NCBI GenBank assembly: GCA_018241505.1
Contig: JAFEDS010000022.1
Location: 124,001-188,000 of the forward strand
Reading direction: 5' to 3'
DNA: 64,000 nucleotides
Source of the DNA: Pseudomonadota bacterium
GTDB lineage: Bacteria; Pseudomonadota; Gammaproteobacteria; Steroidobacterales; Steroidobacteraceae
The position numbers and the translations under genes were made by a program. The notes under the pieces are model-generated. The model saw only the letters and a list, made by a program, of their open reading frames with translations. It made no database searches and was not told the origin of the DNA. How positions within the stretch are numbered: position 1 is the stretch's first letter; every line of letters begins with the position of its first letter. Positions 33,802-54,897 of this stretch are shown here, piece after piece.

Positions 33802-33903
33802 GGCCGAGCCATAGCAAGAAGCACGCCCGATGGCCTGCTTCATAACACATGTTATATCCAGGCTTTGCCGCGATTTGGGTATGACGGTTGCTGCGAGCCA
33901 GCC

Positions 33904-35706
33904 ATGAGTGAGACAGTCGGTGACTTCCTGGTCGAGCGGCTGCACGCGTGGGGCGTGCGTGTGATGTTTGGTTATCCGGGCGACGGCATTAATGGCGTGT
34001 TTGGCGCCTTGAACCGCGCCAAAGGCAAGATCCGTTTCATACAAGCCCGGCACGAAGAGATGGCGGCGTTCATGGCGAGCGCGTACGCCAAGTTCACGGG
34101 AGAGCTGGGAGTGTGCATCGCGACTTCAGGGCCGGGAGCCTCCCACCTGGTAACCGGTCTCTACGACGCGCGTCTCGATCACATGCCGGTGCTGGCAATC
34201 ACCGGACAGCAGGCCCGCGCCGCACTCGGTGGACACTATCAACAGGAAGTGGATCTACCCAGCTTGTATAAAGATGTGGCCGGGGCCTTCGTGCAACAAG
34301 CTGCTTCGGCGCCCCAGGTCAGGCACCTCGTTGACAGGGCGATCCGCATCGCAGTCGCCGAGCGCCGGGTTACCGCGATCATCCTGCCGAACGATCTACA
34401 GGAAAGTCCGTACGAAGATCCGCCACGCGCCCATGGAACTGTGCACTCAGGTATCGGGTACATGCGCCCCCGCACGCTGCCACAGGAAACAGAGCTGCGC
34501 CGCGCCGCGGAAGTGCTGAACAGCGGCAAGAAGGTCGCGATGTTGGTCGGCGCGGGAGCACTCGGGGCCACCGACGAGGTCATTGCCGTAGCCGATCGGC
34601 TCGGCGCCGGAGCCGCCAAGGCGCTGCTCGGCAAGGCCGTACTCCCGGACGATCTGCCCTGGGTGACGGGCTCCATCGGACTGTTGGGAACCGAGCCCAG
34701 CTACGAGCTCATGAACGAGTGCGACACGCTCCTGATGATCGGCTCGGGATTTCCCTATTCGGAATTTTTGCCGCAGGAAGGCAAGGCGCGCGGCGTTCAG
34801 ATCGACATCGCCGCGGACATGTTGTCTTTGCGGTATCCGATGGAAGTCAACCTGACAGGCGACGCGGCGGAAACCTTGCGCGCCCTGCGGCCGTTGCTGG
34901 AATCGAAATCCGACGGCTCCTGGCGCGCAGGTATCGCCAAAAGCATGGATAAATGGTGGCGTAAGCTGGAAGAGCGCGCCATGCAACCGGCCGTCCCTGT
35001 GAATCCTCAGCGGGTCACCTGGGAACTGTCGCCACGCCTGCCCGATCGGGTCATTCTGACCAGCGACTCGGGCTCGTGCGCCAACTGGTATGCGCGCGAT
35101 CTCAAGATCCGCCGCGGCATGATGGCTTCGCTTTCCGGCGGTCTCGCCTCCATGGGCGCGGCTGTGCCCTATGCCATTGCCGCCAAATTTGCACATCCCG
35201 ATCGGCCCGTCATTGCGCTCGTGGGCGATGGGGCAATGCAAATGAACAACATGGCCGAGCTGATTACCGTGTCCAAGTACTGGCGGGAATGGGCCGACCC
35301 GCGCTGGATTGTCTGTGTGTTCAACAACGAGGACCTGAACCAGGTTACCTGGGAACAACGGGTCATGGAAGGCGACCCGAAGTTCGAGGCGTCGCAGGAC
35401 ATTCCGAACGTTCCCTACCACCGGTTCGCGGAGCTCATCGGCCTGGAGGGGATTTTCGTCGACCGCCCGGATGCGCTGGGTGCGGCCTGGGATCGGGCGC
35501 TGGCCGCCCGGCGCCCGGTCGTGTTGGAAGTCAAGACGGACCCGGAGGTCCCACCCCTGCCGCCTCATATCAAATTCGAGCAGGCCGTGAAGTTCTCCAG
35601 GGCGCTCCTCAAAGGCGATCCGCGCGAAGGCGCGATGATCAAGGGAACCGCAAGACAGGTACTGGCGTCGATCCTGCCTGGCTCGCGCGACCACGACAAT
35701 GAGTGA
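33904..35706 (+). CDS. Thiamine-pyrophosphate enzyme, pyruvate oxidase (PoxB) type
   Basis: 600 residues with the three domains of the TPP oxidase family. The N-terminal PYR domain has catalytic Glu51 in ARHEEMAAF. The central domain (about 195-330) has LVGAGALGATDEV. The C-terminal PP domain has the TPP motif VGDGAMQMNN...NNED. The closest pattern is PoxB, which oxidises pyruvate to acetate and passes electrons to quinone; acetolactate-type chemistry cannot be excluded. It is the first gene of the 18-gene operon and overlaps the next by 8 bp. A quinone-reducing enzyme here would feed complex III directly. Confidence 0.87.
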   Translation: MSETVGDFLVERLHAWGVRVMFGYPGDGINGVFGALNRAKGKIRFIQARHEEMAAFMASAYAKFTGELGVCIATSGPGASHLVTGLYDARLDHMPVLAITGQQARAALGGHYQQEVDLPSLYKDVAGAFVQQAASAPQVRHLVDRAIRIAVAERRVTAIILPNDLQESPYEDPPRAHGTVHSGIGYMRPRTLPQETELRRAAEVLNSGKKVAMLVGAGALGATDEVIAVADRLGAGAAKALLGKAVLPDDLPWVTGSIGLLGTEPSYELMNECDTLLMIGSGFPYSEFLPQEGKARGVQIDIAADMLSLRYPMEVNLTGDAAETLRALRPLLESKSDGSWRAGIAKSMDKWWRKLEERAMQPAVPVNPQRVTWELSPRLPDRVILTSDSGSCANWYARDLKIRRGMMASLSGGLASMGAAVPYAIAAKFAHPDRPVIALVGDGAMQMNNMAELITVSKYWREWADPRWIVCVFNNEDLNQVTWEQRVMEGDPKFEASQDIPNVPYHRFAELIGLEGIFVDRPDALGAAWDRALAARRPVVLEVKTDPEVPPLPPHIKFEQAVKFSRALLKGDPREGAMIKGTARQVLASILPGSRDHDNE

Positions 35707-36820
35707 GCGGGCCAGCACTGCGGCCGTGAAAGGTTTGCACGCGAGCGCCTATCGAATTCCTACCGACGGTCCCGAGTCAGACGGAACTTTCAACTGGGAC
35801 GCGACCACACTGGTAGTGGTGCACGTGGACGCTGGTGGTCGGCGCGGCATGGGCTACACGTATGCTGATGCGTCTATTGCATCATTGATTACCGGGCCGC
35901 TCATGCGCGCAGTCATGGATAGAGATGCGTTCGACATCTGCGGGTGTTGGACGGCCATGCAGCGAGCAGTGCGCAATCTCGGCCGCTCGGGGCTTGCCGC
36001 CTGCGCCATTTCTGCCATCGACACCGCGCTATGGGACTTGAAGGCCAAATTGCTGGACATCGCGCTCGCGGCCCTGCTCGGCTGCCGGCGCAGCGCCGTC
36101 CCGATCTACGGCAGCGGCGGCTTCACCAATTATTCGGACGACCAACTCCGAATGCAGTTGTCGAACTGGGCGACGCGCGACGGCTGCAAAGCCGTCAAGA
36201 TGAAAATCGGCAGCGATCCGCAGCGGGATCCCGCCAGGGTGAAGGTGGCTCGAGCGGCCATTGGCGATCGAGAGTTGTTCGTGGACGCCAACGGCGCATT
36301 CTCCACGAGCCAGGCGTTGCGCTTTGCCGCATTCGCACACGAATCGCAGGTGCGCTGGTTTGAGGAGCCCGTGAGCTCCGATGACACCAGCGGGTTGCAC
36401 CTCATGCGTGAGAATGCCCCGGCGGGAATGGAGATCGCAGCCGGGGAATACATCTACACACTCGACGATGCGCGGCGGTTGCTCGAAGGAACTGCAGTGG
36501 ACGTATTACAAGCCGACGTCACGCGCTGCGGCGGTATTACCGGTTTTCTGAATGTGAGCGCACTCTGCGAGGCGCACCACATTGACCTGTCTGGTCACTG
36601 CGCACCTGCTCTTCATCTTCATGTTGCCTGCGCTGCACCCCGGCTGCGCCACCTCGAATGGTTTCACGACCATGTGCGGATCGAACACCTGCTGTTTGAG
36701 GGCGCGCCCATTGCGCGCGAGGGTGCAATTCGCCCCGACCTCGGCCGGCCCGGTCACGGTCTCGAGTTCAAAGCGCGCGATGCCCGCGAATTCGCCGTAC
36801 CGGCAACCCAACTGCAATGA
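35699..36820 (+). CDS. Enolase-superfamily (mandelate racemase/sugar-acid dehydratase) protein
   Basis: 373 residues. The capping domain is followed by a barrel with the expected residues: Lys167-x-Lys169 (VKMKIG), metal ligands Asp196 (FVDANG), Glu222 (RWFEEP) and Glu250 (AAGEY), Asp273 and His300 (LSGHCAPALH). KxK plus a His-Asp dyad is the mandelate-racemase subgroup arrangement, which includes sugar-acid dehydratases. Cytoplasmic. Coupled to both neighbours (8-bp and 4-bp overlaps). A role in dehydrating an aldonate made by the GMC enzyme of the same operon is a reasonable inference; the specific sugar is unknown. Confidence 0.9.
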   Translation: MSERASTAAVKGLHASAYRIPTDGPESDGTFNWDATTLVVVHVDAGGRRGMGYTYADASIASLITGPLMRAVMDRDAFDICGCWTAMQRAVRNLGRSGLAACAISAIDTALWDLKAKLLDIALAALLGCRRSAVPIYGSGGFTNYSDDQLRMQLSNWATRDGCKAVKMKIGSDPQRDPARVKVARAAIGDRELFVDANGAFSTSQALRFAAFAHESQVRWFEEPVSSDDTSGLHLMRENAPAGMEIAAGEYIYTLDDARRLLEGTAVDVLQADVTRCGGITGFLNVSALCEAHHIDLSGHCAPALHLHVACAAPRLRHLEWFHDHVRIEHLLFEGAPIAREGAIRPDLGRPGHGLEFKARDAREFAVPATQLQ

Positions 36821-37626
36821 AGCAGACCACCTCCAGCGCTCGCCAGCTCAATTTGAGCGCCGCTCTCCTGGGCCTGTCCGTGTTGACGGACGCGGGCGTA
36901 GAGCACTACCGCGGCTCATTTCGGAATCGGGCAATGTATGTGCCCCTGGTGAGCGCGGCCCTGACCCTCGGTGCCAGTCTCATGGGCGCCGCCGATCCGG
37001 CGCCGAAGAGTAACCGCGTCCGGGATGCCGTCTATGCGCTGGCTGCGGTGACCGGTCTTGCGGGGCTCGGATTTCACGCCTACAACATAAGCAAACGTCC
37101 CGGTGGCTGGTCCTGGCTGAATCTCTTCTACGCGGCCCCCGTGGGCGCGCCCGGCGCCCTGGTGTTGGCTGGTCTTCTTGGGGGTGCCTCCGAATGGTTA
37201 CGCGAGTGTGATCCTCACGACGCGCAGCGTGTGGGTCGGTTGCTCGCAGCCATCAGCGCTGGCGGATTCGCCGGTAATGTTGCTGAAGTCGGCTTGTTGC
37301 ACTTCCGGGGCGCCTATCAACACCCCGCTATGTTCCTGCCAGTAAGCGTACCGCCGGTCGCCGCCGCTCTGCTGACGCGCGCTGCCCTGAAACCGCCGCA
37401 GCGCGACGGATTGCTGACGCGGACCTGGTTGAAGCTGACGGCATTACTGGGTTTGGTGGGTATTGGGTTTCACGCCCGTGGCGTTTCCCGCAACATGGGC
37501 GGCTGGCGCAACTGGAGCCAGAACATTCTGAACGGGCCGCCGCTGCCGGCTCCGCCCAGCTTCACTGCACTCGCCATTGCGGGACTGGCTGCGCTCGCGC
37601 TGCTGAAGGACCGTCCCCATGACTGA
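36817..37626 (+). CDS. Internally duplicated integral membrane protein, unknown function
   Basis: 269 residues with about eight hydrophobic segments. The two halves are tandem repeats offset by exactly 132 residues: EHYRGSFRNRAMYVPL (29-44) matches LHFRGAYQHPAMFLPV (161-176), and GFHAYNISKRPGGW (85-98) matches GFHARGVSRNMGGW (217-230). Each half keeps one His before the Arg-Gly (30, 162) and one in GFH (87, 219). I do not recognise the family. Position between dehydrogenase genes and four repeat-conserved histidines make a heme-binding or anchoring role possible, but that is speculation. Overlaps both neighbours. Confidence 0.8.
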   Translation: MKQTTSSARQLNLSAALLGLSVLTDAGVEHYRGSFRNRAMYVPLVSAALTLGASLMGAADPAPKSNRVRDAVYALAAVTGLAGLGFHAYNISKRPGGWSWLNLFYAAPVGAPGALVLAGLLGGASEWLRECDPHDAQRVGRLLAAISAGGFAGNVAEVGLLHFRGAYQHPAMFLPVSVPPVAAALLTRAALKPPQRDGLLTRTWLKLTALLGLVGIGFHARGVSRNMGGWRNWSQNILNGPPLPAPPSFTALAIAGLAALALLKDRPHD

Positions 37627-38266
37627 CCGGTATCCCGGCTATGACGTCCTCACCAAACGCAACTCCCCCTCATGGAACGATCAGACACGGCGCGTGGTGG
37701 ATGAGCGGCTGGCAATCGATCCCGGGCGCCATCGGTTCTGCAACGATTCCGAATGGCTGACACTGACGGCAATCTGTGAGCAGGTCGTACCGCAGCCGGC
37801 CGACCGGGCTCATCCTGTACCCATTGCAGCCATGCTGGATGAGAAGCTTTGCGCGAACTCCGGCGACGGCTACCGGAATGGGCGCCTTCCGTCGATGCGC
37901 GAGGCGTGGCGGCGCGGCCTGCGAGCATTTGAAGCCGAGGCACGAGAGCGGCATGGATGTGCGTTTCATCAACTCGCAGCGGCCCAACAGGTAGCGCTGT
38001 TGACCGCCGTGCAGAACGGTCAGGTCGACAGTCCTGCCTGGGGTGACATGCCGCCCGCGCTCTTCTTCACCGACCGGCTGCTGCACGACATTGTGAGCGC
38101 CTATTACGCACACCCGACCGCCTGGAATGAGATCGGTTTCGGCGGTCCCGCCAGCCCCCGCGGCTATGTGCGGTTGGATTTCGATCGCCGTGATCCGTGG
38201 GAAGCCGCTGAGGCGCGGCCCGGCAGTGAGTACCGGGCACGATCCGAAAATGCCCGCGTCGGATGA
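37619..38266 (+). CDS. Gluconate 2-dehydrogenase subunit 3-like protein
   Basis: 215 residues. The helical core (about 42-160: DSEWLTLTAICEQVVPQP, then FHQLAAAQQVALLTAV and FFTDRLLHDIVSAYYAHPTAWNEIGFGGPASPRGY) matches the small gamma subunit of FAD-dependent gluconate/glucose dehydrogenases. In those enzymes the gamma subunit carries the Tat signal and takes the flavoprotein to the periplasm; here neither Tat nor Sec signal is visible at the N-terminus. It is directly followed by, and overlaps by 17 bp, the GMC catalytic subunit, so the two form the expected pair. Confidence 0.85.
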   Translation: MTDRYPGYDVLTKRNSPSWNDQTRRVVDERLAIDPGRHRFCNDSEWLTLTAICEQVVPQPADRAHPVPIAAMLDEKLCANSGDGYRNGRLPSMREAWRRGLRAFEAEARERHGCAFHQLAAAQQVALLTAVQNGQVDSPAWGDMPPALFFTDRLLHDIVSAYYAHPTAWNEIGFGGPASPRGYVRLDFDRRDPWEAAEARPGSEYRARSENARVG

Positions 38267-39902
38267 GGCAGGCGCGCGCCCTCGCGCCATGCAAGGACGC
38301 GCGCCGGACGTCTTCAGGCGGGGCGGGTGGGTCCCGATGCGCCAATTCGGCAACGATACGGAAGTTGATTTCGCGATTGTGGGGACTGGCGCCGGCGGCG
38401 GCACACTGGCCTGCAAGCTGTCCGAATACGGCTTCTCGGTAGTGGCCCTCGATGCGGGGCCGTACTGGCGGCCTCTCGAGGACTTCGCCTCGGATGAATA
38501 CCACCAGAGCAAGCTCTACTGGAGCGACGAGCGCATTGTGGACGGCGAGAATCCGTTGCAGCTTGGTGCCAACAACTCCGGGCGCTCGGTCGGCGGCTCG
38601 ACGGTGCACTTTGCGATGGTGTCGCTGCGCTTTCGACCCGAATGGTTCCGCTCCCGCAGCCAACTCGGCTATGGCGCCGACTGGCCGCTCGACTGGCGCG
38701 AGATGTGGCGTTACTACGGAGAGGTCGAGCAGTCGCTCAAGATTTCCGGTCCCGTCACTTATCCCTGGGGTCCGCGGCGCCCGCGCTACCCTTATCGAGC
38801 GCACGAGCTGAACGCCGCCGCACTGGTTTTGGCCCGAGGCGCCGAGGCGCTCGGCATCCCCTGGACTCCAACTCCGCTCGCAACACTCTCCGCGCCTCGC
38901 GACCTGGCGCACCCCTGTGTCTACCGGGGCATGTGTGTCATCGGGTGTTCCACCAATGCCAAGCAGAGCGTGTTGGTTACCTGGCTGCCGCGTGCCCTGG
39001 CCGCGGGTGCGGAGATTCGCGACCTGGCTACGGTTGGCCGTGTAGAGCACGATCAAAGCGGCCGCGTGACGGGCGTCCACTACCACCGCGAGGGCCAATG
39101 GCAGTTTCAACGGGCCCGCCATGTCGTCGTGGCCGGTTATGCGATTGAAACGCCGCGCCTGCTGTTGAATTCAGCCACCGGCCGTTTCCCCGATGGACTG
39201 GCCAATTCCTCCGGCCTGGTCGGCCGCAATCTCATGGTGCAATCCAACCAGGCAGTGTGGGGAATCATGCAACAGGAGATCCGCTCCTACAAAGCCCCAC
39301 CGTCGCTGGCCATCACCGAGCATTGGAACTACACGGATGCCGGCAAGGATTTCTTCGGGGGCTATTGTTACATGAGCCAGGGCCCTCTGCCCATTGTCTG
39401 GGCCAACACCCAGTCGGCGAAGCGGGGACTGTGGGGCGCGCCGCTGCTGCGGGAGATGGAGAAATACAACCACCAGGTGGGGCTCAAGATTGTTGGCGAA
39501 TGCCTGCCGCAGGAGCGCAATCGAGTGACCTTGACGGACGAACGGGACGGGTTGGGTTTGCCCATACCGCGAGTCACCTTCTCGTACTGCGACAATGACC
39601 GGCGCCTCATCAAGCACTCGCTTCGCTTCATGCGCCATGCGCTGGAAGCCGTGGATGCCGGCGAGATCTGGGACGAGACCGATGACACCTGCCATCTGAA
39701 CGGCACTGCACGCATGGGTTACGACCCCGAAACGAGCGTGGTCGATGCCGACTGCCGTTCCTGGGACATTCCCAATCTCTGGATTTGCGACGGCTCAGTC
39801 TTCCCCACGGTGGGAGGCGTCAACCCGTCGCTCACCATCCAGGCCCTGGCCTGTCGCACCGCCGACCGGATCAGGCAGCTCGCCGCCCGGGGAGAGCTGT
39901 AA
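38250..39902 (+). CDS. GMC-family flavoprotein dehydrogenase (gluconate/glucose dehydrogenase alpha-like)
   Basis: 550 residues. FAD-binding Rossmann motif FAIVGTGAGGGTLACKL begins near residue 41. The C-terminal GMC signature includes CHLNGTARMG with the active-site His and GGVNPSLTIQALA with the conserved Asn. A cysteine triad CVYRGMCVIGC (Cys-x5-Cys-x3-Cys) has the spacing of the 3Fe-4S ligands in FAD glucose dehydrogenase. It oxidises a sugar or aldonate hydroxyl. There is no signal peptide and no tri-heme cytochrome partner; the pentaheme ActA gene begins 5 nt downstream. Start ATG 38250 lacks a clear ribosome site. Confidence 0.88.
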   Translation: MPASDEAGARPRAMQGRAPDVFRRGGWVPMRQFGNDTEVDFAIVGTGAGGGTLACKLSEYGFSVVALDAGPYWRPLEDFASDEYHQSKLYWSDERIVDGENPLQLGANNSGRSVGGSTVHFAMVSLRFRPEWFRSRSQLGYGADWPLDWREMWRYYGEVEQSLKISGPVTYPWGPRRPRYPYRAHELNAAALVLARGAEALGIPWTPTPLATLSAPRDLAHPCVYRGMCVIGCSTNAKQSVLVTWLPRALAAGAEIRDLATVGRVEHDQSGRVTGVHYHREGQWQFQRARHVVVAGYAIETPRLLLNSATGRFPDGLANSSGLVGRNLMVQSNQAVWGIMQQEIRSYKAPPSLAITEHWNYTDAGKDFFGGYCYMSQGPLPIVWANTQSAKRGLWGAPLLREMEKYNHQVGLKIVGECLPQERNRVTLTDERDGLGLPIPRVTFSYCDNDRRLIKHSLRFMRHALEAVDAGEIWDETDDTCHLNGTARMGYDPETSVVDADCRSWDIPNLWICDGSVFPTVGGVNPSLTIQALACRTADRIRQLAARGEL

Positions 39903-39907
39903 GTGCC

Positions 39908-40558
39908 ATGGCGCAGGTATTCGATCGCGGCACTGTGTTGGCGCTCCGGGTGGGATCCATCATCCTGCTGCTGGTTGCAGTCGCCCTGGTCTTTGCCTGG
40001 CGCTGGGGCATCGGTTATCCGCAGGCGCGAAGCGCCCCGCCTCATCAACCTCTACCGTTCAGCCATCAACATCATGTTCGTGATGACGGGATCGACTGCC
40101 GCTACTGCCACACGTCGGTGGAGAAATCAGGCTTCGCCGGCATTCCCTCGAGCGACATCTGCATGACCTGCCATTCGCAACTATTCAAGGACGTCGCCTT
40201 GTTCGAGCCGCTGCGGCAAAGCATGCGGACCGGCAACCGCCTGCATTGGACGCGGGTGCATGATCTGCCTGACTTTGTATTTTTTGATCATAGCGCACAC
40301 GTGACTCATGGCGTTCCCTGCCAGGAATGTCATGGACGCATTGACCAGATGCCGCTGACGGCACGGGTGAAAACTCTGGAGATGCGGTGGTGCCTCTCCT
40401 GTCATCGCGATCCGGGGCCTCACCTGGTAAAGCCCGGCGATGTGTTCACGATGCACACGCGAGAGCCTGCCACCCCGGCTGATCAAAAGGCACTGCTTGC
40501 GTATTACAACATTCCTGACCGGCGGCGAATGACGGATTGCTCACTATGTCACCGGTGA
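39908..40558 (+). CDS. actA: Alternative complex III subunit ActA (pentaheme cytochrome c)
   Basis: 216 residues: one N-terminal membrane anchor (about 11-33), then five heme c motifs, CRYCH (64-68), CMTCH (85-89), CQECH (138-142), CLSCH (162-166) and CSLCH (211-215). Five hemes and the single anchor are the ActA pattern. ActA takes electrons from the iron-sulfur chain of ActB and passes them to ActE or the oxidase. The last heme motif lies at the very C-terminus, and its codons overlap the actB start by 13 bp. Confidence 0.93.
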   Translation: MAQVFDRGTVLALRVGSIILLLVAVALVFAWRWGIGYPQARSAPPHQPLPFSHQHHVRDDGIDCRYCHTSVEKSGFAGIPSSDICMTCHSQLFKDVALFEPLRQSMRTGNRLHWTRVHDLPDFVFFDHSAHVTHGVPCQECHGRIDQMPLTARVKTLEMRWCLSCHRDPGPHLVKPGDVFTMHTREPATPADQKALLAYYNIPDRRRMTDCSLCHR

Positions 40559-43365: not shown

Positions 43366-43368
43366 TTC

Positions 43369-45263: not shown

Positions 45264-45847
45264 GGTGGCCTATGCGCCGGCTCGCGCTCGTCACTCTCAT
45301 TGCGCTTGGGGGCTGCGAGAAGCAGATGCAGGACATGTACGATCAGCCCCGCTACAAGCCGCTCGCGGCCAGCTCAATGTTTACTGATGGCGGCGCATCG
45401 CGACCTCCCGTGGCAGGGACCCAGGTGCACGCGCGGGGCACCTTCTCGGGCAGCTCGTCGGGGCGCGTCGGCACGGACACTGCTCAGCGGTGGTACCGCG
45501 ACGAGCTTGCCACCAGCAATCCCTATCCTGTCACTCTCAGCTTGCTGAAACGCGGACAGGACCGATTCAACATCTACTGCGCACCCTGCCACAGCCCGGT
45601 GGGCGACGGCGATGGGTTCATTGTGCACCGGGGATTTCCCGCGCCCCCCTCCTACCACATCGATCGGCTTCGAGAGGCGCCCGATCGCCACTTCTTCGAT
45701 GTCATGACGCACGGCTATGGAATCATGTATCCCTATGCCGATCGGGTCACGCCTCGGGATCGCTGGGCAATCGTGGCCTACATCCGCGCGCTGCAACTGA
45801 GTCAGCACGCACCCGCTTCCTCGTTGGATCGCGAGAGCCCGAAATGA
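45260..45847 (+). CDS. actE: Alternative complex III subunit ActE (mono-heme cytochrome c lipoprotein)
   Basis: 195 residues. Lipoprotein signal with lipobox LGGC (Cys19), then MYDQPRYKPLAAS, a typical ActE N-terminal stretch. A single heme c motif CAPCH lies at 107-111 with a likely Met ligand near HGYGIMYPYADRV. ActE is the periplasmic outlet that hands electrons on. Overlaps actD and actF by 4 bp each. Confidence 0.93.
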   Translation: MRWPMRRLALVTLIALGGCEKQMQDMYDQPRYKPLAASSMFTDGGASRPPVAGTQVHARGTFSGSSSGRVGTDTAQRWYRDELATSNPYPVTLSLLKRGQDRFNIYCAPCHSPVGDGDGFIVHRGFPAPPSYHIDRLREAPDRHFFDVMTHGYGIMYPYADRVTPRDRWAIVAYIRALQLSQHAPASSLDRESPK

Positions 45848-46926
45848 GCCGCGCGACTCGCTACACCTCGATTGCGGGCGCCTGTGCCGCTGTCATGGTC
45901 GCTGCCGGGTATGCCTTCAATCCCGCGGAGTTCCTCAGCTCATATCTGTTTGCTTTCCTGTTTTGCGTGGGCTTGTCGCTGGGAGCGATGGCGAATCTGA
46001 TGCTGCACGAGCTGACCGGCGGACGCTGGGGTCTGCCAATCCGCCGCCCGTGGACTGCCGCTACGCGCCTCGTGCCATTGAACATTGTGTTGTTTATTCC
46101 CTTGTTGTGCGGGCTGCCATTGGTCTATCACTGGGTTGGCTCGAGCGCGCCGGACGTGTCACTCAAACACTGGTGGCTGAACCGCCCGTTCTTCCTTGCT
46201 CGTGCTGCCGTCTACTTGCTGATCTGGGCGATCCTCGCCTGGCGCTGGCTGGCAGTCGCGGCCCGTACCGACGAAATGCGGCCGCCGGCGCTGCGGCGCT
46301 GGAGCGCGCTCGGCCTCATCCTTTACGGTCTGACCATGTCACTGGCGGCTGTCGACTGGATCATGTCCCTGATGCCGCAGTGGTATTCGACCACATTCGG
46401 CCTGCTCGTCGGTACATCCCAGATGCTCTCGGGGATGGCGCTCGGCGCGGCTGCGTGCGCCTTCTGGCCGGAAGCCCGCACCGACGCGGGGCGCCTCCAG
46501 GATTTCGGCAACCTGCTGCTCATGTACGTCATGAGCTGGGCCTACCTGGCCTTCACCCAGTACCTCATCATCTGGGCGGAAGACTTGCCGAAGGAGACGG
46601 CCTGGTTTATACCGCGCGTGCAGACGAGCTGGCGCTGGCTCACGCTGACTGTGCTCATTTTGCAGTTTGCCCTGCCTTTCGTACTGTTGCTGTCCCGTGT
46701 GGTGAAGCGCGCTCCCCGCTACCTCGGCCCTTTGGCGCTCTCTTTGCTGATCGGACAGCTTCTGTTCAATTTCTACCTCGTCATGCCCGTATTGAAACCT
46801 ACTGGCTTCCAGCTTGCGTGGAGCGATCCGTTGGTGGTGATCGCTGTCGTGGGCTTCTGGTTCGTTGCATGGGTACGCAATCTCAACACGCCGTTGTCGC
46901 ATGAATACGCCAACCCCCACCGGTGA
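45844..46926 (+). CDS. actF: Alternative complex III subunit ActF (NrfD-like membrane protein)
   Basis: 360 residues with about ten membrane helices, the second NrfD-like subunit of the complex. Features include LSLGAMANLMLHELTGGRWG, SLAAVDWIMSLMPQWYSTTFG and LLLMYVMSWAYLAFTQYLIIW. ActF pairs with ActC and may contribute to proton movement. The start is set by the ATGA overlap with actE; the frame stays open further upstream but without family similarity. Confidence 0.94.
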   Translation: MSRATRYTSIAGACAAVMVAAGYAFNPAEFLSSYLFAFLFCVGLSLGAMANLMLHELTGGRWGLPIRRPWTAATRLVPLNIVLFIPLLCGLPLVYHWVGSSAPDVSLKHWWLNRPFFLARAAVYLLIWAILAWRWLAVAARTDEMRPPALRRWSALGLILYGLTMSLAAVDWIMSLMPQWYSTTFGLLVGTSQMLSGMALGAAACAFWPEARTDAGRLQDFGNLLLMYVMSWAYLAFTQYLIIWAEDLPKETAWFIPRVQTSWRWLTLTVLILQFALPFVLLLSRVVKRAPRYLGPLALSLLIGQLLFNFYLVMPVLKPTGFQLAWSDPLVVIAVVGFWFVAWVRNLNTPLSHEYANPHR

Positions 46927-47227
46927 ACATCCGCAACAGGAGCCCGACGACCTGCGCCCTCGCGCGATTTTGCTCTGCGCAGCCGCGGTGGTCGGCATGG
47001 TGTTGGCGGCAGCGCTGTTGGCTCACTTGTTGACGCACGGCCCCAACGCGGCCCCGCCGACCCGACCCGCAAGCTACTTGACCAGCAATCCGGACGCTGA
47101 CATAACCAAGTATCAACAGGAGAAGCGTTCGCAACTGGAAGCACCCGGATGGGTGGACCAGGACCACTTTGCGCACATTCCGATTGAGCAGGCCATGCGG
47201 GAGCTGGCCGCTGGGAGCTCGAAATGA
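46901..47227 (+). CDS. Small single-span membrane protein of the act-cox cluster
   Basis: 108 residues. One membrane helix (about 22-44) with a short proline-rich cytoplasmic N-terminus, then a periplasmic tail of about 60 residues ending in QLEAPGWVDQDHFAHIPIEQAMREL. No cysteine or heme motif is seen in the tail. The position between actF and the SCO gene, and the IPI-x-x-AM ending that I associate with small proteins of such clusters, suggest an accessory or assembly role. The ATG lies 26 bp inside actF. Confidence 0.75.
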   Translation: MNTPTPTGEHPQQEPDDLRPRAILLCAAAVVGMVLAAALLAHLLTHGPNAAPPTRPASYLTSNPDADITKYQQEKRSQLEAPGWVDQDHFAHIPIEQAMRELAAGSSK

Positions 47228-47985
47228 ACCCCCGGATCGCAGGGCTCGCCGCGATACTGCTCTGTCTCGCCACGCCGTTGCAGGCAGCAGTGACGAACGT
47301 GGGATGGGATCAGCACACAGGCACCCTGCTACCTCTGCAACTTCATTTTCGCGACGAGTCAAATCACGCGGTGGTGCTGGGCAAGTATTTCAACCGGACG
47401 CCCGTGGTACTGGTACTGACCTATTTCTCCTGCCCGGAGCTGTGCCCAATGGTCCTGCAAGGCGTGCAGGAATCCCTCCGCAGCACCGGACTCGAGCCCG
47501 GCCGCGACTACCAACTCCTGGCCGTCAGCATCGATCCGCGCGACACGCCCGCGGAAGCCCGGCAAAAGATGGCTGAGTTGCTGAAATTCGCACCCCTGCG
47601 GCTAGCCACGCATTTCCTGACGGCACCGGACAACTCAGCCGCCGTCCTCGCGCATGTTCTCGGCCTGCGCTACGCCTTTGACTCCGAGCACGGTCAATTC
47701 GCGCACGCGGCCGGATTCACAGTGGTGAACAGCCATGGGCGTATCAGTCAATACCTGTTTGGTGTTCGCTACCCGGCCGGGACCGTACGAACCGCCCTGA
47801 TTGATGCAGGCCGCGGTCGCATCGACGCCTATGCCGATCAACTGCTGCTGTTGTGTTATCACTTCGACCCCCTGCTTGGCCGATACAGCCTTGCGATCCT
47901 GACCGGGTTCCGCGTTGCAGGCGTGCTCGCCCTGTTGCTGGGTGCACTCGGTTGGTGGCGCCTGTCGCATGCGAGAAGGCCATGA
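47224..47985 (+). CDS. SCO1/SenC-type copper chaperone for cytochrome oxidase
   Basis: 253 residues. Signal peptide (1-21), thioredoxin-like domain with the copper-binding CPELC (Cys70, Cys74) and distal His161 (QFAHAAGF), then an extra C-terminal membrane helix (about 226-246). SCO proteins deliver copper to, or reduce the cysteines of, the CuA centre in subunit II, whose gene follows with a 4-bp overlap. The C-terminal anchor differs from the usual N-terminally anchored SCO but is common in act-cox clusters. Confidence 0.93.
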   Translation: MNPRIAGLAAILLCLATPLQAAVTNVGWDQHTGTLLPLQLHFRDESNHAVVLGKYFNRTPVVLVLTYFSCPELCPMVLQGVQESLRSTGLEPGRDYQLLAVSIDPRDTPAEARQKMAELLKFAPLRLATHFLTAPDNSAAVLAHVLGLRYAFDSEHGQFAHAAGFTVVNSHGRISQYLFGVRYPAGTVRTALIDAGRGRIDAYADQLLLLCYHFDPLLGRYSLAILTGFRVAGVLALLLGALGWWRLSHARRP

Positions 47986-48917
47986 CCTACAACATGGATG
48001 CAGCACTACGTTCGGCATCCACGCTGGGTACAAAGGTGGATGCGCTGTTCCTGACGATGCTCGGCATCACGGGGATAGTCGCGGTCGGCGTCGCCGTGCT
48101 GATTGTCCTGTTCGCGATCCGCTACCGGCACGGTTCGAAGGCAGATCGCTCGCATCCACCCACGCGCGTGCGCTGGGTCGAGATCACCTGGACGACCACA
48201 CCGCTGGCGATCTTCCTGGTCATTTTTTTCTGGTCGAGCGAGGTGTTCACCCAGTTTCATCGGCCGCCCGACAACGCGCTGCGCATCCATGTCCTGGCCA
48301 AACAGTGGATGTGGAAGCTCGAACATGCCAACGGCCGGCGTGAGATCGATGAGCTGCACGTGCCGCTGGGTGAACCGGTCGAGCTGATCATGACTTCACA
48401 GGATGTCATCCACAGTTTCTTTGTGCCGGCTTTTCGTGTGAAGCAGGATGTCGTGCCGGGCCGCTATACCAACCTGTGGTTCACGGCCACACGAGCGGGA
48501 CGTTTCGATCTGGAATGCGCGGAGTATTGCGGCACCGAGCACGCGAGGATGCACGGCGCGATCATAGTGATGCGTCCTGTCGAGTTTGCCGACTGGCTTG
48601 CGGCCGGTACGGCGCAGCCCGGACTGGCTTCGCGCGGTTTCGATCTGTATCGCCGCGTTGGCTGCAGTGGTTGCCACGAACCCACCTCCACCGTCCATGC
48701 GCCGGATCTCACAGGATTGTTCGGCAATCCGGTCCATCTCGCCGACGGCAGTAGGGTCGTTGCGGATGAGAACTATATCCGCGATTCCATCCTGCAGCCG
48801 CAGAAACAGATCGTCGCCGGATTCGATCCTGTGATGCCTTCGTTTCAAGGCCAGCTCAGTGAGGATGATCTGATCGCACTCATTGCGTTCATTCAATCGC
48901 GAGGCAATGCGCCATGA
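47982..48917 (+). CDS. coxB: caa3-type cytochrome c oxidase subunit II with fused cytochrome c domain
   Basis: 311 residues. Two N-terminal membrane helices, then the cupredoxin domain with the full CuA ligand set: His144, Cys179, Glu181, Cys183, His187 and Met190 ([13 protein letters not shown]). A fused cytochrome c domain follows with CSGCH (228-232), which defines caa3 oxidases. The heme domain would accept electrons from ActE/ActA and pass them to CuA. Coupled to SCO and coxA by 4-bp overlaps. Confidence 0.96.
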
Positions 48918-50551
48918 TTGAAACCGCGCTCCCCGCCAGCTCCTTTCACGAGGCCAGTTACCTTCGGGAAGGGTTCACGCTGCGCTCCTGGCTGCTCACG
49001 CGGGATCACAAGCGCATTGCCCTGCTCTACATGATTTCGATTACCGGCTTCTTCTTTATTGGCGGTGCCGCCGCCACCCTGATGCGACTCGAGCTGATGA
49101 CACCGGCCGGGGACCTGGTAAGCGCCGAGACCTACAACCGCTTGTTCACGGTCCACGGCGTCATCATGGTCTGGTTCTTTCTCATTCCCTCGATACCCGC
49201 CACCCTGGGCAATTTCCTGATTCCTCTCATGATCGGCGCGCGCGAAGTGGCCTTTCCGCGCCTGAATCTGGCGAGTTGGTACATCTACACGCTTGGCGGC
49301 CTGTTCGTGGTCGCAACTCTGATTGCCGGTGGTGTTGACACAGGCTGGACCTTCTACACGCCGTTTTCGACGCTGTTCTCCAACTCCAACGTGATACTCG
49401 CCGTCGCGGGTGTTTTCGTCGTTGGTTTCTCATCCATCCTGACGGGGCTCAACTTCATCGTGACCGTACACCGGATGCGCGCCCCGGGGATGACGTGGTT
49501 CAGACTTCCCCTGTTTGTGTGGGCGCACTACGCAACCAGCGCGATCCTGGTACTCGCCACCCCCGTGCTGGCCATGACATTGTGCCTCATTGCGTTCGAA
49601 CGCATCACCCACATCGGGATCTTCGATCCCGCCCTGGGCGGCGATCCGCTGTTGTTTCAGCATCTGTTCTGGTTCTACTCGCATCCTGCCGTCTACATCA
49701 TGGTGCTGCCGGCCATGGGAGTCGCAAGCGAAATTATTCCGTGCTTCGCCCGCAAGCCGGTCTTCGGTTACCGCATGATGGCGTACGCCATTCTCGGCAT
49801 TGCCGTGATCGGCTTTCTGGTCTGGGGACACCATATGTTTGTGTCCGGCCAGAGCGTTTACGCCAGCGTCGCTTTCTCGCTTCTGAGCTACCTGGTCGCC
49901 ATTCCATCCGCCATCAAGGTCTTCAACTGGACCGCGACTCTTTACAAGGGCTCCATCACCTGCTCGGCACCCATGCTGTATGCGCTCGGGTTCGTCGGCC
50001 TGTTCACCATTGGCGGGCTGACCGGGTTGTTTCTGGCCGCGGCGGCGCTCGATGTGCACCTGACCGACACCTATTTCGTAGTGGCCCACTTTCACTACAT
50101 CATGGTGGGGGGCACGGTCATGGCCTATCTCGGAGCGTTGCATTTCTGGTGGCCCAAAATCACGGGCCGGATGTATCCCGAAGTGTGGGGCCGTATTGCC
50201 GCGGTTGTGATTTTCATCGGCTTCAATCTCACGTTTTTTCCGCAATACCTGCTGGGTGCCTGGGGCATGCCACGGCGATATCACGAGTACGCCCCGCAGT
50301 TCCAATTGCTCAACGAGATCTCCTCATCGGGAGCTGCCATCCTGGGACTGGGCTATCTGCTGCCGCTGGTCTATCTCACCTGGTCGATGCTGCACGGCGC
50401 GCGCGCACGCGACAACCCGTGGAGCGCAACCGGGCTCGAGTGGCAGACACCCTCTCCGCCTCCCCAACACAACTTCGACTCGAATCCGCAGGTGGACCGA
50501 GGGCCCTACTGCTATCAGCCGGCCGCCGAGACAGCGGAGCCACCGGCATGA
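48914..50551 (+). CDS. coxA: caa3-type cytochrome c oxidase subunit I (heme-copper, type A2)
   Basis: 545 residues with 12 helices. Heme and copper ligands are His81, His257, His306/His307, His392 and His394. The cross-linked His-Tyr pair lies in YSHPAVY (255-261), which lacks the Glu of the A1 motif GHPEVY and carries the Tyr-Ser pair that defines the A2 subtype. The K-channel Lys335 (IKVFNW) is present. At the D-channel entrance the usual Asp is Glu111 ([10 protein letters not shown]). Reduces oxygen to water and pumps protons. Confidence 0.97.
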
Positions 50552-51180
50552 ACGTCGTTGCGGAGCAATTTGCGAGCGCCGCGCGCCAGCGCCAGTCCGC
50601 GGAGCTGGGAATGTGGGTATTCCTGTCCACGGAGATCATGTTCTTTGCCCCTCTGTTCCTGGGATACACATACGGGCGCTGGGCGCTCGCGGACAGCTTC
50701 GGGGCCGCCAGTCAGCATACGGATGTTGTGATTGGAACCGCCAACACCGTCATCCTGCTCACGAGCAGCCTGTTTATGGCCCTGGCCGTCCGAGCGGCCA
50801 AGCTGGGGCAGCGTCGCCCGTGCGTCACGCTTCTCAGTATAACCGGGGTGCTGGGTCTCACCTTCCTGGCGCTCAAGGGGCTCGAATACTACGGCGAGTG
50901 GCGCGAGCATCTCGTGCCCTGGCTGGACTTCCACTTCGATCCCGCCAGGCGCGGTGGGGCGGAGCTGTTCTATTTCCTGTACTTCGGCGCGACGGGCCTG
51001 CACGCCATCCACCTGAGCATAGGCGTCACAATCGTCTTCATCTTCGCGGTACGGGTCAGTCGCCAGGGTATTGCCCGGCTGGGGAACCAACTGGAGATCG
51101 GTGCACTGTACTGGCATTTCGTCGACAGCATCTGGGTGCTGCTGTACCCCATGATCTACCTCGTGGAGCGCCACGGATGA
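50548..51180 (+). CDS. coxC: Cytochrome c oxidase subunit III
   Basis: 210 residues with five membrane helices ([20 protein letters not shown] at the first; [35 protein letters not shown] at the last). The five-helix form is usual for caa3/cyoC-type subunit III. The start is fixed by the ATGA overlap with coxA; upstream sequence in the same frame is not similar to the family. Confidence 0.95.
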
Positions 51181-51506
51181 GCTCCCTCAAATCCCTGCTC
51201 GCCGTGTGGTTGGGTTTGATGCTTCTACTCGCATTGACGACGGCGAGCTCGTACCTGTCATTGGGGGTCGGCAACACCATCATCAATCTGGTCATCGCAT
51301 TCATGAAGATCGGGCTCATTGTGTGTTTCTTCATGCACCTGCCCCGTGCCGACGTCGCGGTTCGCCTGACGGCGGCGGCAACCCTGTTGTTCCTGTTCTT
51401 CATGGGCTTTCTCATTTTCGGCGATCTGCTGACACGCCACCCGCGGCGGGCACCTTGGACGGCGCCGGCTGAGTCGGTCGGTGGACCCTATTGGGGCAAC
51501 CCATGA
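51177..51506 (+). CDS. coxD: Cytochrome oxidase subunit IV (caa3/CyoD type)
   Basis: 109 residues with three membrane helices: about 7-27, 35-55 (INLVIAFMKIGLIVCFFMHL) and 65-85. The FMKIGLIVCFFMHL stretch is typical of prokaryotic subunit IV, which stabilises the oxidase. It overlaps coxC upstream and the debranching-type enzyme gene downstream, each by 4 bp. Confidence 0.93.
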   Translation: MSSLKSLLAVWLGLMLLLALTTASSYLSLGVGNTIINLVIAFMKIGLIVCFFMHLPRADVAVRLTAAATLLFLFFMGFLIFGDLLTRHPRRAPWTAPAESVGGPYWGNP

Positions 51507-53785
51507 ACCGGCTCGACCGCAGGTTGATACGCTTGCGGCCGCGCGCAACGGCCCTGCACGTCAGCCACGACCGTACCGTATTGGTTCTCGCGCGTAACGG
51601 GTTCATTCACCCGGACGAACATGAAGGACTGTTCGTGGACGAGACACGTCTGCTATCGCGCTACGACTGCCGGATTGACGGGCACGCGCTGTTGCCGGTA
51701 GCCCTGTCGAATGTGGCACAACATAGCTGGCTCGGCTACTACATCATCGCGCCGCCTGGCGCCGGCCATGGGCGCGGCAACATCTTCTCCCCCGCAAAGC
51801 CTGCGCAACAGACTATTGAAGTACGCATTTCGCGATTCGTCGGCGAAGGCATGCACGAGGATCTCGATCTGACCAACTTCACGCAGCGTGCAGTCTCCGT
51901 ACAACTGGCGCTGACGATTGACGCAGACTTTGCCGACCAGCAGGAGATTCCGAAGTCATCCAAGCAACACGGCCAACGCACGTGTGAATGGGTTGAGAGT
52001 CGTCGGGAGCTGACGTTCGACTACCGGGCCGAGCATTCGTACGTGAACCAGAGCGAGCGCGGTGTTGCATCCCTGCATCGCGGGCTCACGTTGCGAGTCA
52101 CGAATGCAGACTCCCCACCCGAATTTCACGACGGTCGGATTGTCTTCACCGTGAATCTTGCGCCGCACGGTCACTGGCACACGTGCCTGCAATGGCTGCC
52201 GTTCATTGATGGCCAATCATTGCAACCGTGTTACGGCTGTCACTGCTTCGAGGCAAGCAGCGCACTTTTCCTGGAGGAAGCCACCGACTTCTCGACGCTG
52301 GCCGGCCACACCCTGCAACACACAGTGATCGAGACATTGCAGCAAGGCAAGCGGGATCTGGCAGCGCTGCGTTTTCATCACCATGATTCGAATGAGCGTA
52401 ACTGGACGGTAGCTGCAGGAATACCTTTGTATGTCTCTTTGTTCGGCCGGGACACGCTGACGACAGGCTGGGAGGCGGCGCTGCTCGGACCCGAGCTCAT
52501 GCGCGGAGCATTGACAGCGCTGGCCCGCACGCAAGGCACCGAGGAGAACGACTGGCGCGATGAACAACCCGGTCGCATGTTGCATGAAGCGCACCGGGGT
52601 CCGCAGGCCACCCTCAACTTCAATCCGAAAGGGCGTGACTACTGCTCGGTGACGACATCCAACTTCTATCCCTTCGTACTGGCGCAGTTGTGGCATTGGA
52701 CCGGCCGCAAGGAGGAGGTCGCTCCCTATATCGAGCCTGCGATGCGTGCTCTGCAATGGTTGAAGGCCGCGGATCTCGACCAGGATGGCTTCGTCGAATA
52801 TCAGACCCGCTCCACCCAGGGTGCCCGCAATCAGTCCTGGAAAGACTCGAACGATGCCATGGTGTACGAGGACGGCAGCCAGGTGCCAACACCGATCGCG
52901 ACCTGCGAGGAACAGGGCATCCTGTATGCGGCCAAGCTCAATATGGCCGAGGTCCTCTGGTGGTTCGACCGCAAGGACGAAGCGACGCAGTTGCATCACG
53001 AGGCCATTGAGCTCAAGCAACGCTTCAATGAAGCCTACTGGGTGCCCGAGCTCGACTGCTTCGCCATGGCGCTCGATCCCGACAAGCGGCCGGTGCGCTC
53101 AATTGCCTCGAATCCCATTCACTGCGTGGTGACCGGGATTGCCGAGCGGGAGTTGGCGCTGCGCACGCTCGATCGCATGTTTGCAGCCGATATGTTTTCC
53201 GGTTGGGGCATCCGGACCTTGTCGGCACAGCACCCGGCCTACGACCCCTACTCCTACCATCGCGGTTCCGTGTGGCCGGTCGAGCATGGTCCGTTCGCGG
53301 TGGCCCTGTACCGCTATGGCCAACACGAACGCGTGCACCAGCTTTGCCAGGCGCAATTCGAGCTGGCATCCCTGTTCGATTTCTGCCGTTTACCGGAATG
53401 CGTGAGCGGCCATCCGCGCGATGAGGCTCACCCTTTTCCAGCGCTCTATCCGGATGCCAATTCCCCGCAGGCCTGGTCCGCGAGCACGCCGCTCACCCTG
53501 GTCCAGGTGTTGTTGGGCCTACAGCCCTTCGCACCTCTGAACATGTTGTTTATTGACCCGCAATTGCCCGAGTGGTTGCCACAATTCACTCTGCACCGGC
53601 TGCGGGTGGCCGACGCGATCATCAGCATCCGTTTTTTTCGCACTGCCAGTGGCCGCAGCGACTATGAGATTTGCGAACAGCGGGGCACGCTGCACGTGAT
53701 CCGGCAACCGAGCCCCTGGTCGCTCACTGCCACTGTACCGGAGCGCCTGCGCGATCTATTGGAGGGCTTTCTGCCCGGCAAATGA
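51503..53785 (+). CDS. Glycogen-debranching-type enzyme (amylo-alpha-1,6-glucosidase-like)
   Basis: 760 residues, no signal peptide. The N-terminal domain (GDE_N_bis pattern: GLFVDETRLLSRYDCRIDG, near 32-50) is followed by an (alpha/alpha)6 barrel with LFGRDTLTTGWEAAL (from about 313), DGFVEYQT...NQSWKDSNDAM and DPYSYHRGSVWPVEHGPFAVAL. These match debranching/trehalase-like glucosidases; Asp in KDSNDAM is a candidate catalytic residue. It presumably releases glucose units from a branched alpha-glucan in the cytoplasm. It is the last of the 18 coupled genes, an odd partner for an oxidase. Confidence 0.88.
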   Translation: MNRLDRRLIRLRPRATALHVSHDRTVLVLARNGFIHPDEHEGLFVDETRLLSRYDCRIDGHALLPVALSNVAQHSWLGYYIIAPPGAGHGRGNIFSPAKPAQQTIEVRISRFVGEGMHEDLDLTNFTQRAVSVQLALTIDADFADQQEIPKSSKQHGQRTCEWVESRRELTFDYRAEHSYVNQSERGVASLHRGLTLRVTNADSPPEFHDGRIVFTVNLAPHGHWHTCLQWLPFIDGQSLQPCYGCHCFEASSALFLEEATDFSTLAGHTLQHTVIETLQQGKRDLAALRFHHHDSNERNWTVAAGIPLYVSLFGRDTLTTGWEAALLGPELMRGALTALARTQGTEENDWRDEQPGRMLHEAHRGPQATLNFNPKGRDYCSVTTSNFYPFVLAQLWHWTGRKEEVAPYIEPAMRALQWLKAADLDQDGFVEYQTRSTQGARNQSWKDSNDAMVYEDGSQVPTPIATCEEQGILYAAKLNMAEVLWWFDRKDEATQLHHEAIELKQRFNEAYWVPELDCFAMALDPDKRPVRSIASNPIHCVVTGIAERELALRTLDRMFAADMFSGWGIRTLSAQHPAYDPYSYHRGSVWPVEHGPFAVALYRYGQHERVHQLCQAQFELASLFDFCRLPECVSGHPRDEAHPFPALYPDANSPQAWSASTPLTLVQVLLGLQPFAPLNMLFIDPQLPEWLPQFTLHRLRVADAIISIRFFRTASGRSDYEICEQRGTLHVIRQPSPWSLTATVPERLRDLLEGFLPGK

Positions 53786-54807: not shown

Positions 54808-54897
54808 CGTCTGTGCTCCGATAAACGGTTCGTGTCCAATCAATTCCCGAGCCGCAAAGCTGTTCCGCCGGCACGGAAGCTGCTTCCTGAGTCGCCC

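What the first reader, a model, noticed from the sequence alone, without database searches (positions are those of the whole stretch)
33904..53785. 18-gene coupled super-operon joining sugar oxidation to alternative complex III and caa3 oxidase
Seen: 18 consecutive plus-strand genes over 19.9 kb; 15 of 17 junctions overlap (4-26 bp) and the other two gaps are 5 and 3 nt. Known: ACIII-SCO-coxBACD clusters exist and ACIII can form a supercomplex with caa3 oxidase. Unusual: the transcript also carries, upstream, a PoxB-type TPP enzyme, enolase-family protein, an unknown duplicated membrane protein, a gluconate-dehydrogenase-3-like protein and a GMC flavoprotein, and downstream a debranching enzyme. 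Inference: a dedicated pathway taking branched glucan or its sugar acids to oxygen, in which the GMC enzyme may donate to the pentaheme ActA because its usual tri-heme subunit is missing.
Basis: partly seen in the sequence, partly recalled or inferred. Interest (0 to 1): 0.8.

Follow-up and report, generated by a model that had tools for sequence, protein, structure and literature searches.

The report
Sugar-oxidising module fused to respiratory chain
Eighteen tightly packed bacterial genes join an uncharacterised set of sugar- and acid-oxidising enzymes to a known but unusual respiratory chain ending at oxygen, and the same two gene sets lie side by side in several other bacteria in different gene orders, which suggests that they work together.

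Summary
In detail: 18 plus-strand genes, 15 of 17 junctions overlapping (4-26 nt), gaps of 5 and 3 nt. The ACIII-SCO-caa3 half is a known kind (COX operon type a-I). The five upstream genes (TPP enzyme, enolase-family enzyme, new 8-TM protein, Gluconate_2-dh3 protein, GMC flavoenzyme), often with an SDR, are a separate module conserved in 80 named loci. A same-genus relative keeps the enolase gene, an SDR and a debranching-type enzyme around its ACIII-caa3. Tight packing is ordinary for ACIII operons. Direct GMC-to-ActA transfer is unlikely: no export signal was found and 41 of 74 module genomes have no ActD match; but 14 of 80 loci hold a tri-heme cytochrome gene near the module. Best reading: a cytosolic sugar-oxidation module feeding quinone, drained by an ACIII-caa3 branch additional to bc1. 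Linkage is shown; co-transcription, substrates and electron route are inferred. New variant of a known kind; the paper searches made showed no description.

The parts
33904..35706 (+). gene 1, TPP-dependent enzyme, NF006129/PRK08273 family, related to PoxB
   Evidence: Pfam TPP_enzyme N/M/C; NF006129 1107 bits over cut-off 724, pyruvate oxidase models under cut-off; best PDB E. coli PoxB 3ey9 285 bits
35699..36820 (+). gene 2, enolase superfamily (mandelate racemase type), probable acid-sugar dehydratase
   Evidence: MR_MLE_N/C; PDB 3cyj 386 bits, named only as MR/MLE-like; KxK 167/169, D196, E222, E250, D273, H300 conserved in at least 95% of 62 rows (catalytic roles recalled)
36817..37626 (+). 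gene 3, 8-TM duplicated membrane protein of unknown family, four conserved His
   Evidence: no Pfam or NCBIfam match; conserved H30, H87, H162, H219; AF2 pLDDT 89; no Foldseek PDB match at E<=0.001
37619..38266 (+). gene 4, Gluconate_2-dh3 family protein without recognisable Tat signal
   Evidence: PF13618 86.8 bits; conserved non-signal N-terminus; no hydrophobic stretch in the first 50 residues of 77 rows
38250..39902 (+). gene 5, GMC flavoprotein of the FAD-glucose/fructose dehydrogenase type
   Evidence: GMC_oxred N/C; PDB 6a2u 176 bits; C223, C229, C233, H482, N525 conserved in at least 95% of 80 rows
39908..40558 (+). gene 6, ActA pentaheme cytochrome
   Evidence: 5 CxxCH; Cytochrome_C7
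40555..43365 (+). gene 7, ActB, molybdopterin-type plus Fe-S domains
   Evidence: Tat-like N-terminus by eye
43369..44739 (+). gene 8, ActC (NrfD)
   Evidence: PF03916 84 bits
44736..45263 (+). gene 9, ActD
   Evidence: PF11821 209 bits
45260..45847 (+). gene 10, ActE monoheme cytochrome
   Evidence: Cytochrome_CBB3; 1 CxxCH
45844..46926 (+). gene 11, ActF
   Evidence: no Pfam hit; position and 27-44% identity to ActF of other ACIII loci
46901..47227 (+). gene 12, small single-TM protein, recurrent between ActF and SCO
   Evidence: no Pfam hit; homologues at the same place, e.g. L135, L141, L151
47224..47985 (+). gene 13, SCO copper chaperone
   Evidence: SCO1-SenC
47982..48917 (+). gene 14, CoxB with C-terminal cytochrome c (caa3)
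   Evidence: COX2 + cytochrome c; TIGR02866 over cut-off
48914..50551 (+). gene 15, CoxA, A2 type
   Evidence: PF00115 497 bits; YSHP motif (its meaning recalled); TIGR02891 over cut-off
50548..51180 (+). gene 16, CoxC
   Evidence: COX3
51177..51506 (+). gene 17, CoxD
   Evidence: COX4_pro
51503..53785 (+). gene 18, GDE_N_bis debranching-type glycoside hydrolase
   Evidence: PF14742 134 bits, MGH1-like_GH, GDE_C
53791..54843 (-). SDR, probable sixth gene of the module, convergent with gene 18
   Evidence: adh_short; PRK07109 431 bits over cut-off 264; homologues in 45 of 80 module loci, the eight best printed 61-72% identical; 49 of 80 with a looser filter

Best explanation
Two functional blocks are packed into one probable operon. 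Block A (33904-39902, plus the SDR at 53791-54843) is a conserved module for oxidising a sugar and its acid in the cytosol: the GMC enzyme with its small partner oxidises a sugar through FAD and a 3Fe-4S cluster, the enolase-family enzyme dehydrates the sugar acid, the TPP enzyme acts on a resulting 2-oxo acid in the manner of PoxB, and the 8-TM protein couples or anchors the dehydrogenase at the membrane. Electrons enter the quinone pool. Block B (39908-51506) is a dedicated second quinol branch, ACIII to an A2-type caa3 oxidase, additional to bc1, that drains the pool to oxygen. Gene 18, like the GH15 trehalase-like enzyme found near the module elsewhere, supplies sugar from storage or stress glucans. 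Shown: gene content, conservation of the module, recurrent linkage in different gene orders, conserved cluster cysteines, no recognisable export signal in the rows tested, bc1 present too. Inferred: co-transcription, cytosolic site, substrates, quinone as acceptor, role of the 8-TM protein.
For: Linkage: 12 of 33 module genomes with an ActD match have ACIII within about 8 kb, 0.29 expected by chance. Arrangements: module then ACIII on one strand (window); ACIII-caa3 then TPP-MR-mem on one strand (REEB68, L169); divergent (10 genomes); convergent with SDR, MR and GH15 between (Dyella acidiphila, L174). The linked state changes at least 7 times on the ActB tree and 8 on the GMC tree (6 forced by starred branches). 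In the window's genus, 2 of 37 genomes have ActD and the same 2 have the module's GMC; in G031, SDR-ActA...CoxD-MR lie in one run with a GDE homologue divergent, while TPP-mem-Gdh3-GMC lie on another contig. The module also sits by other oxidases: CoxA in 18 of 80 loci (17 of 45 with full flanks), one of which, L102, is the ACIII-linked caa3; 4-10 COX1 matches per genome in 21 genomes. 3Fe-4S ligands: C223/C229/C233 align with BcGDH C212/C218/C222. bc1 in 11 of 11 genomes tested. Gluconolactonase (SMP-30) gene divergent from the module in G031.
Against: No transcript, enzyme or flux data. 41 of 74 module genomes have no ActD match, so ACIII is not required (some are incomplete assemblies). In 396 other genomes of the phylum the 8-TM protein is in 5 and ActD in 25, both in only 2, not adjacent (p = 0.034). 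21 of 33 module genomes with ActD keep the two apart or on different contigs, several untestable because contigs end. The linked state is clustered by descent (Bradyrhizobium and Nitrobacter are 7 of the 12), so 12 is not a count of independent events. A tri-heme cytochrome gene (472 aa) lies near the module in 14 of 80 loci, mostly behind the non-ACIII CoxBAC set, so an exported dehydrogenase with a cytochrome acceptor is not excluded there. 17 of 77 small-subunit rows have an RR-hydrophobic motif, though without a hydrophobic stretch. The 8-TM protein's conserved histidines lie on the predicted periplasmic side (K+R 14.4 against 7.3), awkward for a cytosolic dehydrogenase. No aldolase or lactonase is among the 18 genes. 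The GDE homologue is in none of the 80 held module loci.
Confidence: 0.53

Rival explanations
1. Co-regulation only: module, hydrolases and extra oxidase branch belong to one stress or starvation regulon (trehalose/glucan use plus an additional respiratory branch) and cluster for joint expression, with no special electron path between them.
For: EcfG-like GGAAC-N15-18-CGTT upstream of TPP in 5 of 50 loci, four of them at -76 to -93 (L053, L057, L121, L129), against 0.36 expected (consensus recalled); trehalase-like GH15 in 32 of 80 loci; ASRT and PCC genes near some loci.
Against: 45 of 50 lack the motif, and the window has none upstream of TPP; repeated choice of respiratory genes as neighbours fits an electron link at least as well.
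Confidence: 0.27
2. Neighbours by horizontal transfer: all are accessory genes that travel in the same islands, without a functional link.
For: The window's GMC is nearest to Xanthobacteraceae and Bradyrhizobium proteins while its ActB is nearest to Paraburkholderia, so the parts have separate histories. No matched control of other accessory genes was run.
Against: Separate histories plus linkage in different gene orders argue for selection of the neighbourhood; tight overlaps run across the join; in 18 fetched stretches around other GMC relatives (31-40% identity, two of them paralogues in G000) the only act or cox hits were two ActB-like ones at 28-30%.
Confidence: 0.13
3. One reading: the GMC enzyme is periplasmic and gives electrons directly to pentaheme ActA.
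For: 3Fe-4S cysteines kept and no tri-heme gene in the window; ActA directly follows the GMC gene; elsewhere a tri-heme cytochrome gene is near the module in 14 of 80 loci, so a heme acceptor is conceivable.
Against: No hydrophobic signal-like stretch in the first 50 residues of 77 small-subunit rows or 80 GMC rows (crude test, rows were cut near the window's start codon, so longer N-termini were not examined); no ActD match in 41 of 74 module genomes; in 11 of 12 linked genomes ACIII is on the opposite strand.
Confidence: 0.05

Closest known systems
ACIII-caa3 superoperon / COX operon type a-I
   Same: ActABCDEF-SCO-CoxBACD order, cytochrome c fused to CoxB, A2-type CoxA, ACIII next to oxidase (passages seen in PMC5928083, PMC4013037, PMC6431628, PMC8407424)
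   Different: Preceded and followed in one overlapping run by a carbon-oxidation module and a debranching-type hydrolase
COX operon type a-II with PQQ-dependent dehydrogenases
   Same: Precedent for a dehydrogenase encoded in an oxidase operon (PMC4013037 passage)
   Different: Different dehydrogenase class, different oxidase operon type, and ACIII present
FAD-dependent glucose dehydrogenase of Burkholderia (alpha GMC, gamma hitchhiker, beta tri-heme)
   Same: GMC with three 3Fe-4S cysteines and a Gluconate_2-dh3 partner
   Different: No recognisable Tat signal on the partner, no tri-heme gene in the window, an 8-TM protein gene in the module; the position of the disulfide Cys213 is not a Cys
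PoxB, ubiquinone-dependent pyruvate dehydrogenase
   Same: Similarity over most of its length to 3ey9 (285 bits)
   Different: Falls in another family, NF006129, and under PoxB cut-offs

Membership tests
Alternative complex III | ActA with five c-type hemes and ActE with one | tested here: met
   5 and 1 CxxCH
Alternative complex III | ActB with molybdopterin-type and Fe-S domains | tested here: met
   Pfam; solved ACIII structures 8k9e, 6lod, 6f0k, 6btm
Alternative complex III | ActC (NrfD) and ActD | tested here: met
   PF03916, PF11821 over cut-off
Alternative complex III | ActF as second NrfD-like subunit | tested here: inconclusive
   No Pfam match; homologous to ActF-position proteins
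A2-type caa3 oxidase | CoxB fused to cytochrome c; YSHP in CoxA | tested here: met
COX operon type a-I | ACIII cluster attached to a COX operon | tested here: met
FAD-GDH/FDH type three-subunit dehydrogenase | GMC subunit with 3Fe-4S cysteines | tested here: met
FAD-GDH/FDH type three-subunit dehydrogenase | gamma subunit of Gluconate_2-dh3 family | tested here: met
   PF13618; fold comparison gave no clear match, no PDB sequence match at E<=1
FAD-GDH/FDH type three-subunit dehydrogenase | Tat signal on gamma for export | tested here: not met
   no hydrophobic stretch in the first 50 residues of the window protein or of the other 76 rows (own crude test, no signal-peptide predictor available)
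FAD-GDH/FDH type three-subunit dehydrogenase | tri-heme cytochrome subunit gene next to it | tested here: not met
   the ActA frame is the only frame of the window with three or more CxxCH; in 14 of 80 relatives' loci a tri-heme cytochrome gene is within the held flank, not directly beside the GMC gene
PoxB pyruvate:quinone oxidoreductase | scores over the curated PoxB model | tested here: not met
   NF006591 371.6 bits, cut-off 792
Known acid-sugar dehydratases of the enolase superfamily | scores over a curated dehydratase model | tested here: not met
   best NF047820 187 bits, cut-off 500

The most novel reading that the evidence does not exclude
The module is a new kind of membrane-coupled cytosolic sugar dehydrogenase: GMC and its partner, having lost export and the cytochrome subunit, hand electrons from the 3Fe-4S cluster to the 8-TM protein, whose four conserved histidines bind heme b or a quinone, and ACIII-caa3 has been recruited several times as its dedicated oxidase branch, so that a stress sugar is burned through a private respiratory chain that bypasses bc1.
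Probability: 0.2. Interest if true: 0.8.

Novelty: new variant of a known kind. Interest (0 to 1): 0.57.

Why it matters
Why many bacteria keep ACIII beside bc1 is not settled as far as I know (recalled). A recurrent neighbour set names a candidate electron source and makes the question testable in cultured strains such as Bradyrhizobium, Roseomonas acroporae or Dyella acidiphila. It also brings out an uncharacterised, strongly conserved module (GMC 73-83% identical to the window's in 80 loci from Bradyrhizobium, Paraburkholderia, Dyella and others) with a membrane protein of no family known to Pfam or NCBIfam.

Tried and rejected

Data not used or incomplete: 80 of 171 confirmed relatives were returned; ActD was searched in the genomes of 74 of these 80 loci (L114, L116, L117, L119, L125, L127 not searched; L117 bears the same strain name as L065). 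The 24 loci were chosen partly because act genes had been seen. In the trees, 2 of 37 ActB rows and 30 of 81 GMC rows carried no label because contigs end too soon. G031 counts as linked in the ActB tree (MR and SDR beside ACIII) and as unlinked in the GMC tree.
Full report
The window is G000:C14:124001-188000 of a 7.88 Mb assembly.

Genes 6-17 are a standard ACIII-SCO-caa3 operon. ActA has five heme motifs, ActE one, CoxB one; ActB matches solved ACIII; CoxA carries YSHP, the A2-type signature (recalled). A passage of PMC4013037 calls ACIII plus COX 'COX operon type a-I', and passages of PMC8407424 call ACIII plus A2 caa3 a superoperon. Its tight packing is typical: 214 of 269 scored junctions in 36 fetched ACIII loci overlap as well, by a script that favours overlap.

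Genes 1-5 are something else. A genome scan with an alignment of the window's GMC and that of the same-genus relative G031 gave 171 relatives, of which 80 were returned, 73-83% identical. In these 80 loci the Gdh3-like gene is found in 77, the membrane protein in 76, the MR gene in 61, the TPP gene in 60, the SDR in 49, a GH15 trehalase-like gene in 32 (many loci are cut by contig ends). Order and strand are mostly those of the window; the TPP gene is turned round or displaced in some. The SDR whose end lies 5 nt from the end of gene 18 in the window (53791-54843, minus) is a homologue of the SDR found there. So in the window the ACIII-caa3-GDE block stands between GMC and SDR.

Is the neighbourhood of module and ACIII recurrent? 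ActD (PF11821) was sought in the genomes of 74 of the 80 loci: 17 of 24 and 16 of 50 have it, 33 in all; the first set had been chosen partly because act genes were already seen, so the two rates differ. Contig lengths and the fetched stretches show ACIII within about 8 kb of the module in 12: L053, L057, L058, L061, L068, L083, L084, L090, L107 and L129 (divergent), L102 Dyella acidiphila (convergent, SDR-MR-GMC-Gdh3-mem facing ACIII-caa3-GH15; no TPP gene seen there) and REEB68 (L162/L169: CoxD followed after about 180 nt by TPP-MR-mem on the same strand, to the contig end). Random placement would give 0.29, though relatives are not independent. On the ActB tree the linked state needs at least 7 changes (35 labelled rows), on the GMC tree 8, of which 6 are forced by starred branches (51 labelled rows). 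One ActB group of 14 rows holds 10 of the 14 linked ones; another of 11 rows holds none (10 labelled), and Nitrobacter 62-13 has one ACIII in each (quick trees, rooted at the midpoint).

The window's own genus adds to this: of 37 genomes, 2 have ActD (G000, G031) and the same 2 have the module's GMC, at 71% identity to each other. These two may be sisters, so the nominal p of 0.0015 is not an independent test. In G031 the module (TPP-mem-Gdh3-GMC) lacks the MR gene and has no act or cox gene in the fetched stretches; its ACIII-caa3 on another contig has MR (57%) right after CoxD, an SDR (48%) right before ActA, and a GDE_N_bis enzyme divergent from it. PqiA and MlaD genes lie near that cluster as they do upstream of gene 1 in the window, hinting at a common ancestral locus. 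In Nitrobacter 62-13 (L068/L139/L168) module, ACIII-caa3, SDR, GH15 and a GDE homologue all lie in one stretch. Paraburkholderia rhynchosiae has a GDE homologue divergent from ActA (L170).

Against: ACIII is not obligatory. 41 of 74 module genomes have no ActD match, many of them Paraburkholderia and Caballeronia, where the module often stands by another oxidase (CoxA within the held flank in 18 of 80 loci, 17 of 45 with full flanks, L102's caa3 included). In 14 of 80 loci a tri-heme cytochrome gene lies in the held flank, in most behind that CoxBAC set, in two (L083, L108) behind another, distant GMC gene; it could serve that oxidase, but it could also be an acceptor for the module. An evenly drawn phylum sample shows only weak co-occurrence (both in 2 genomes; 5 with the 8-TM protein, 25 with ActD, of 396).

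Mechanism. The GMC enzyme is nearest to FAD-glucose and fructose dehydrogenases. The three cysteines that hold the 3Fe-4S cluster in the Burkholderia enzyme (PMC6719666 passages) are conserved (C223, C229, C233; at least 95% of 80 rows). But the partner has no recognisable Tat signal: its N-terminus is conserved (25 rows printed), and no 12-residue stretch in the first 50 residues of 77 rows reaches a mean hydropathy of 1.8, which ActB of the window does; 17 of the 77 do have an RR-hydrophobic motif. The same test finds nothing in 80 GMC rows. The test is crude, and rows were cut near the window's start codon. With TPP and enolase-type enzymes around it the module is most simply cytosolic, so direct donation to periplasmic ActA is unlikely. 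All 11 genomes tested also have bc1, so ACIII is an additional branch. A quinone link fits: sugar oxidation and PoxB-like chemistry reduce quinone, ACIII oxidises quinol. The 8-TM protein (AF2 pLDDT 89, pTM 0.89) is two 4-TM repeats with four conserved histidines; it may be the membrane partner, but the positive-inside count puts those histidines on the periplasmic side, and no function is shown.

Sugar source: one GH15 neighbour tested resembles trehalases (NF041084, 380 bits, under the cut-off of 820); gene 18 is a debranching-type hydrolase. Four loci from Xanthobacteraceae, Bradyrhizobium, Roseomonas and an unplaced proteobacterium have an EcfG-like site at -76 to -93 of the TPP gene, a fifth (L108) at -245, of 50 loci examined, which makes stress or starvation control plausible there, not in the window.

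The operon is a new variant of a known kind (type a-I COX operon) with a conserved, uncharacterised carbon-oxidation module that is repeatedly found beside ACIII.

Noticed in passing
window 30739-34053 (-): PqiA/PqiB(MlaD)/PqiC-type genes divergent from gene 1; PqiA and MlaD also lie a little beyond the GDE gene of G031's ACIII locus (L171:8372-11022).
   Followed up: partly
L171:7244-8320, L031:13407-14480, L102:7047-8168: AI-2E family transporter genes (PF01594) beside module or ACIII pieces in G031 (twice) and Dyella acidiphila.
   Followed up: partly
window 28577-30628 (-): 683 aa protein without Pfam or NCBIfam match; by eye it holds a FGRDT stretch like that in gene 18.
   Followed up: no
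L132 and L139 (Nitrobacter sp. 62-13): One genome with two ACIII clusters that fall in different ActB groups, only one beside the module.
   Followed up: partly
L032:1-768 (G031:C11 from about 156,000): SMP-30/gluconolactonase gene divergent from the module's TPP gene in G031.
   Followed up: partly
window 17023-18966 and 14423-17440 (+): Alpha-galactosidase (Melibiase) frame overlapping the end of a TonB-dependent receptor gene, a likely sugar-use locus apart from the operon.
   Followed up: no
L062, L066, L067, L091, L126, L128: Module followed by a different CoxBAC set (24-42% identity to the window's), in four of the six (L062, L066, L067, L091) with a tri-heme cytochrome behind it: a parallel module-oxidase linkage without adjacent ACIII.
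   Followed up: partly
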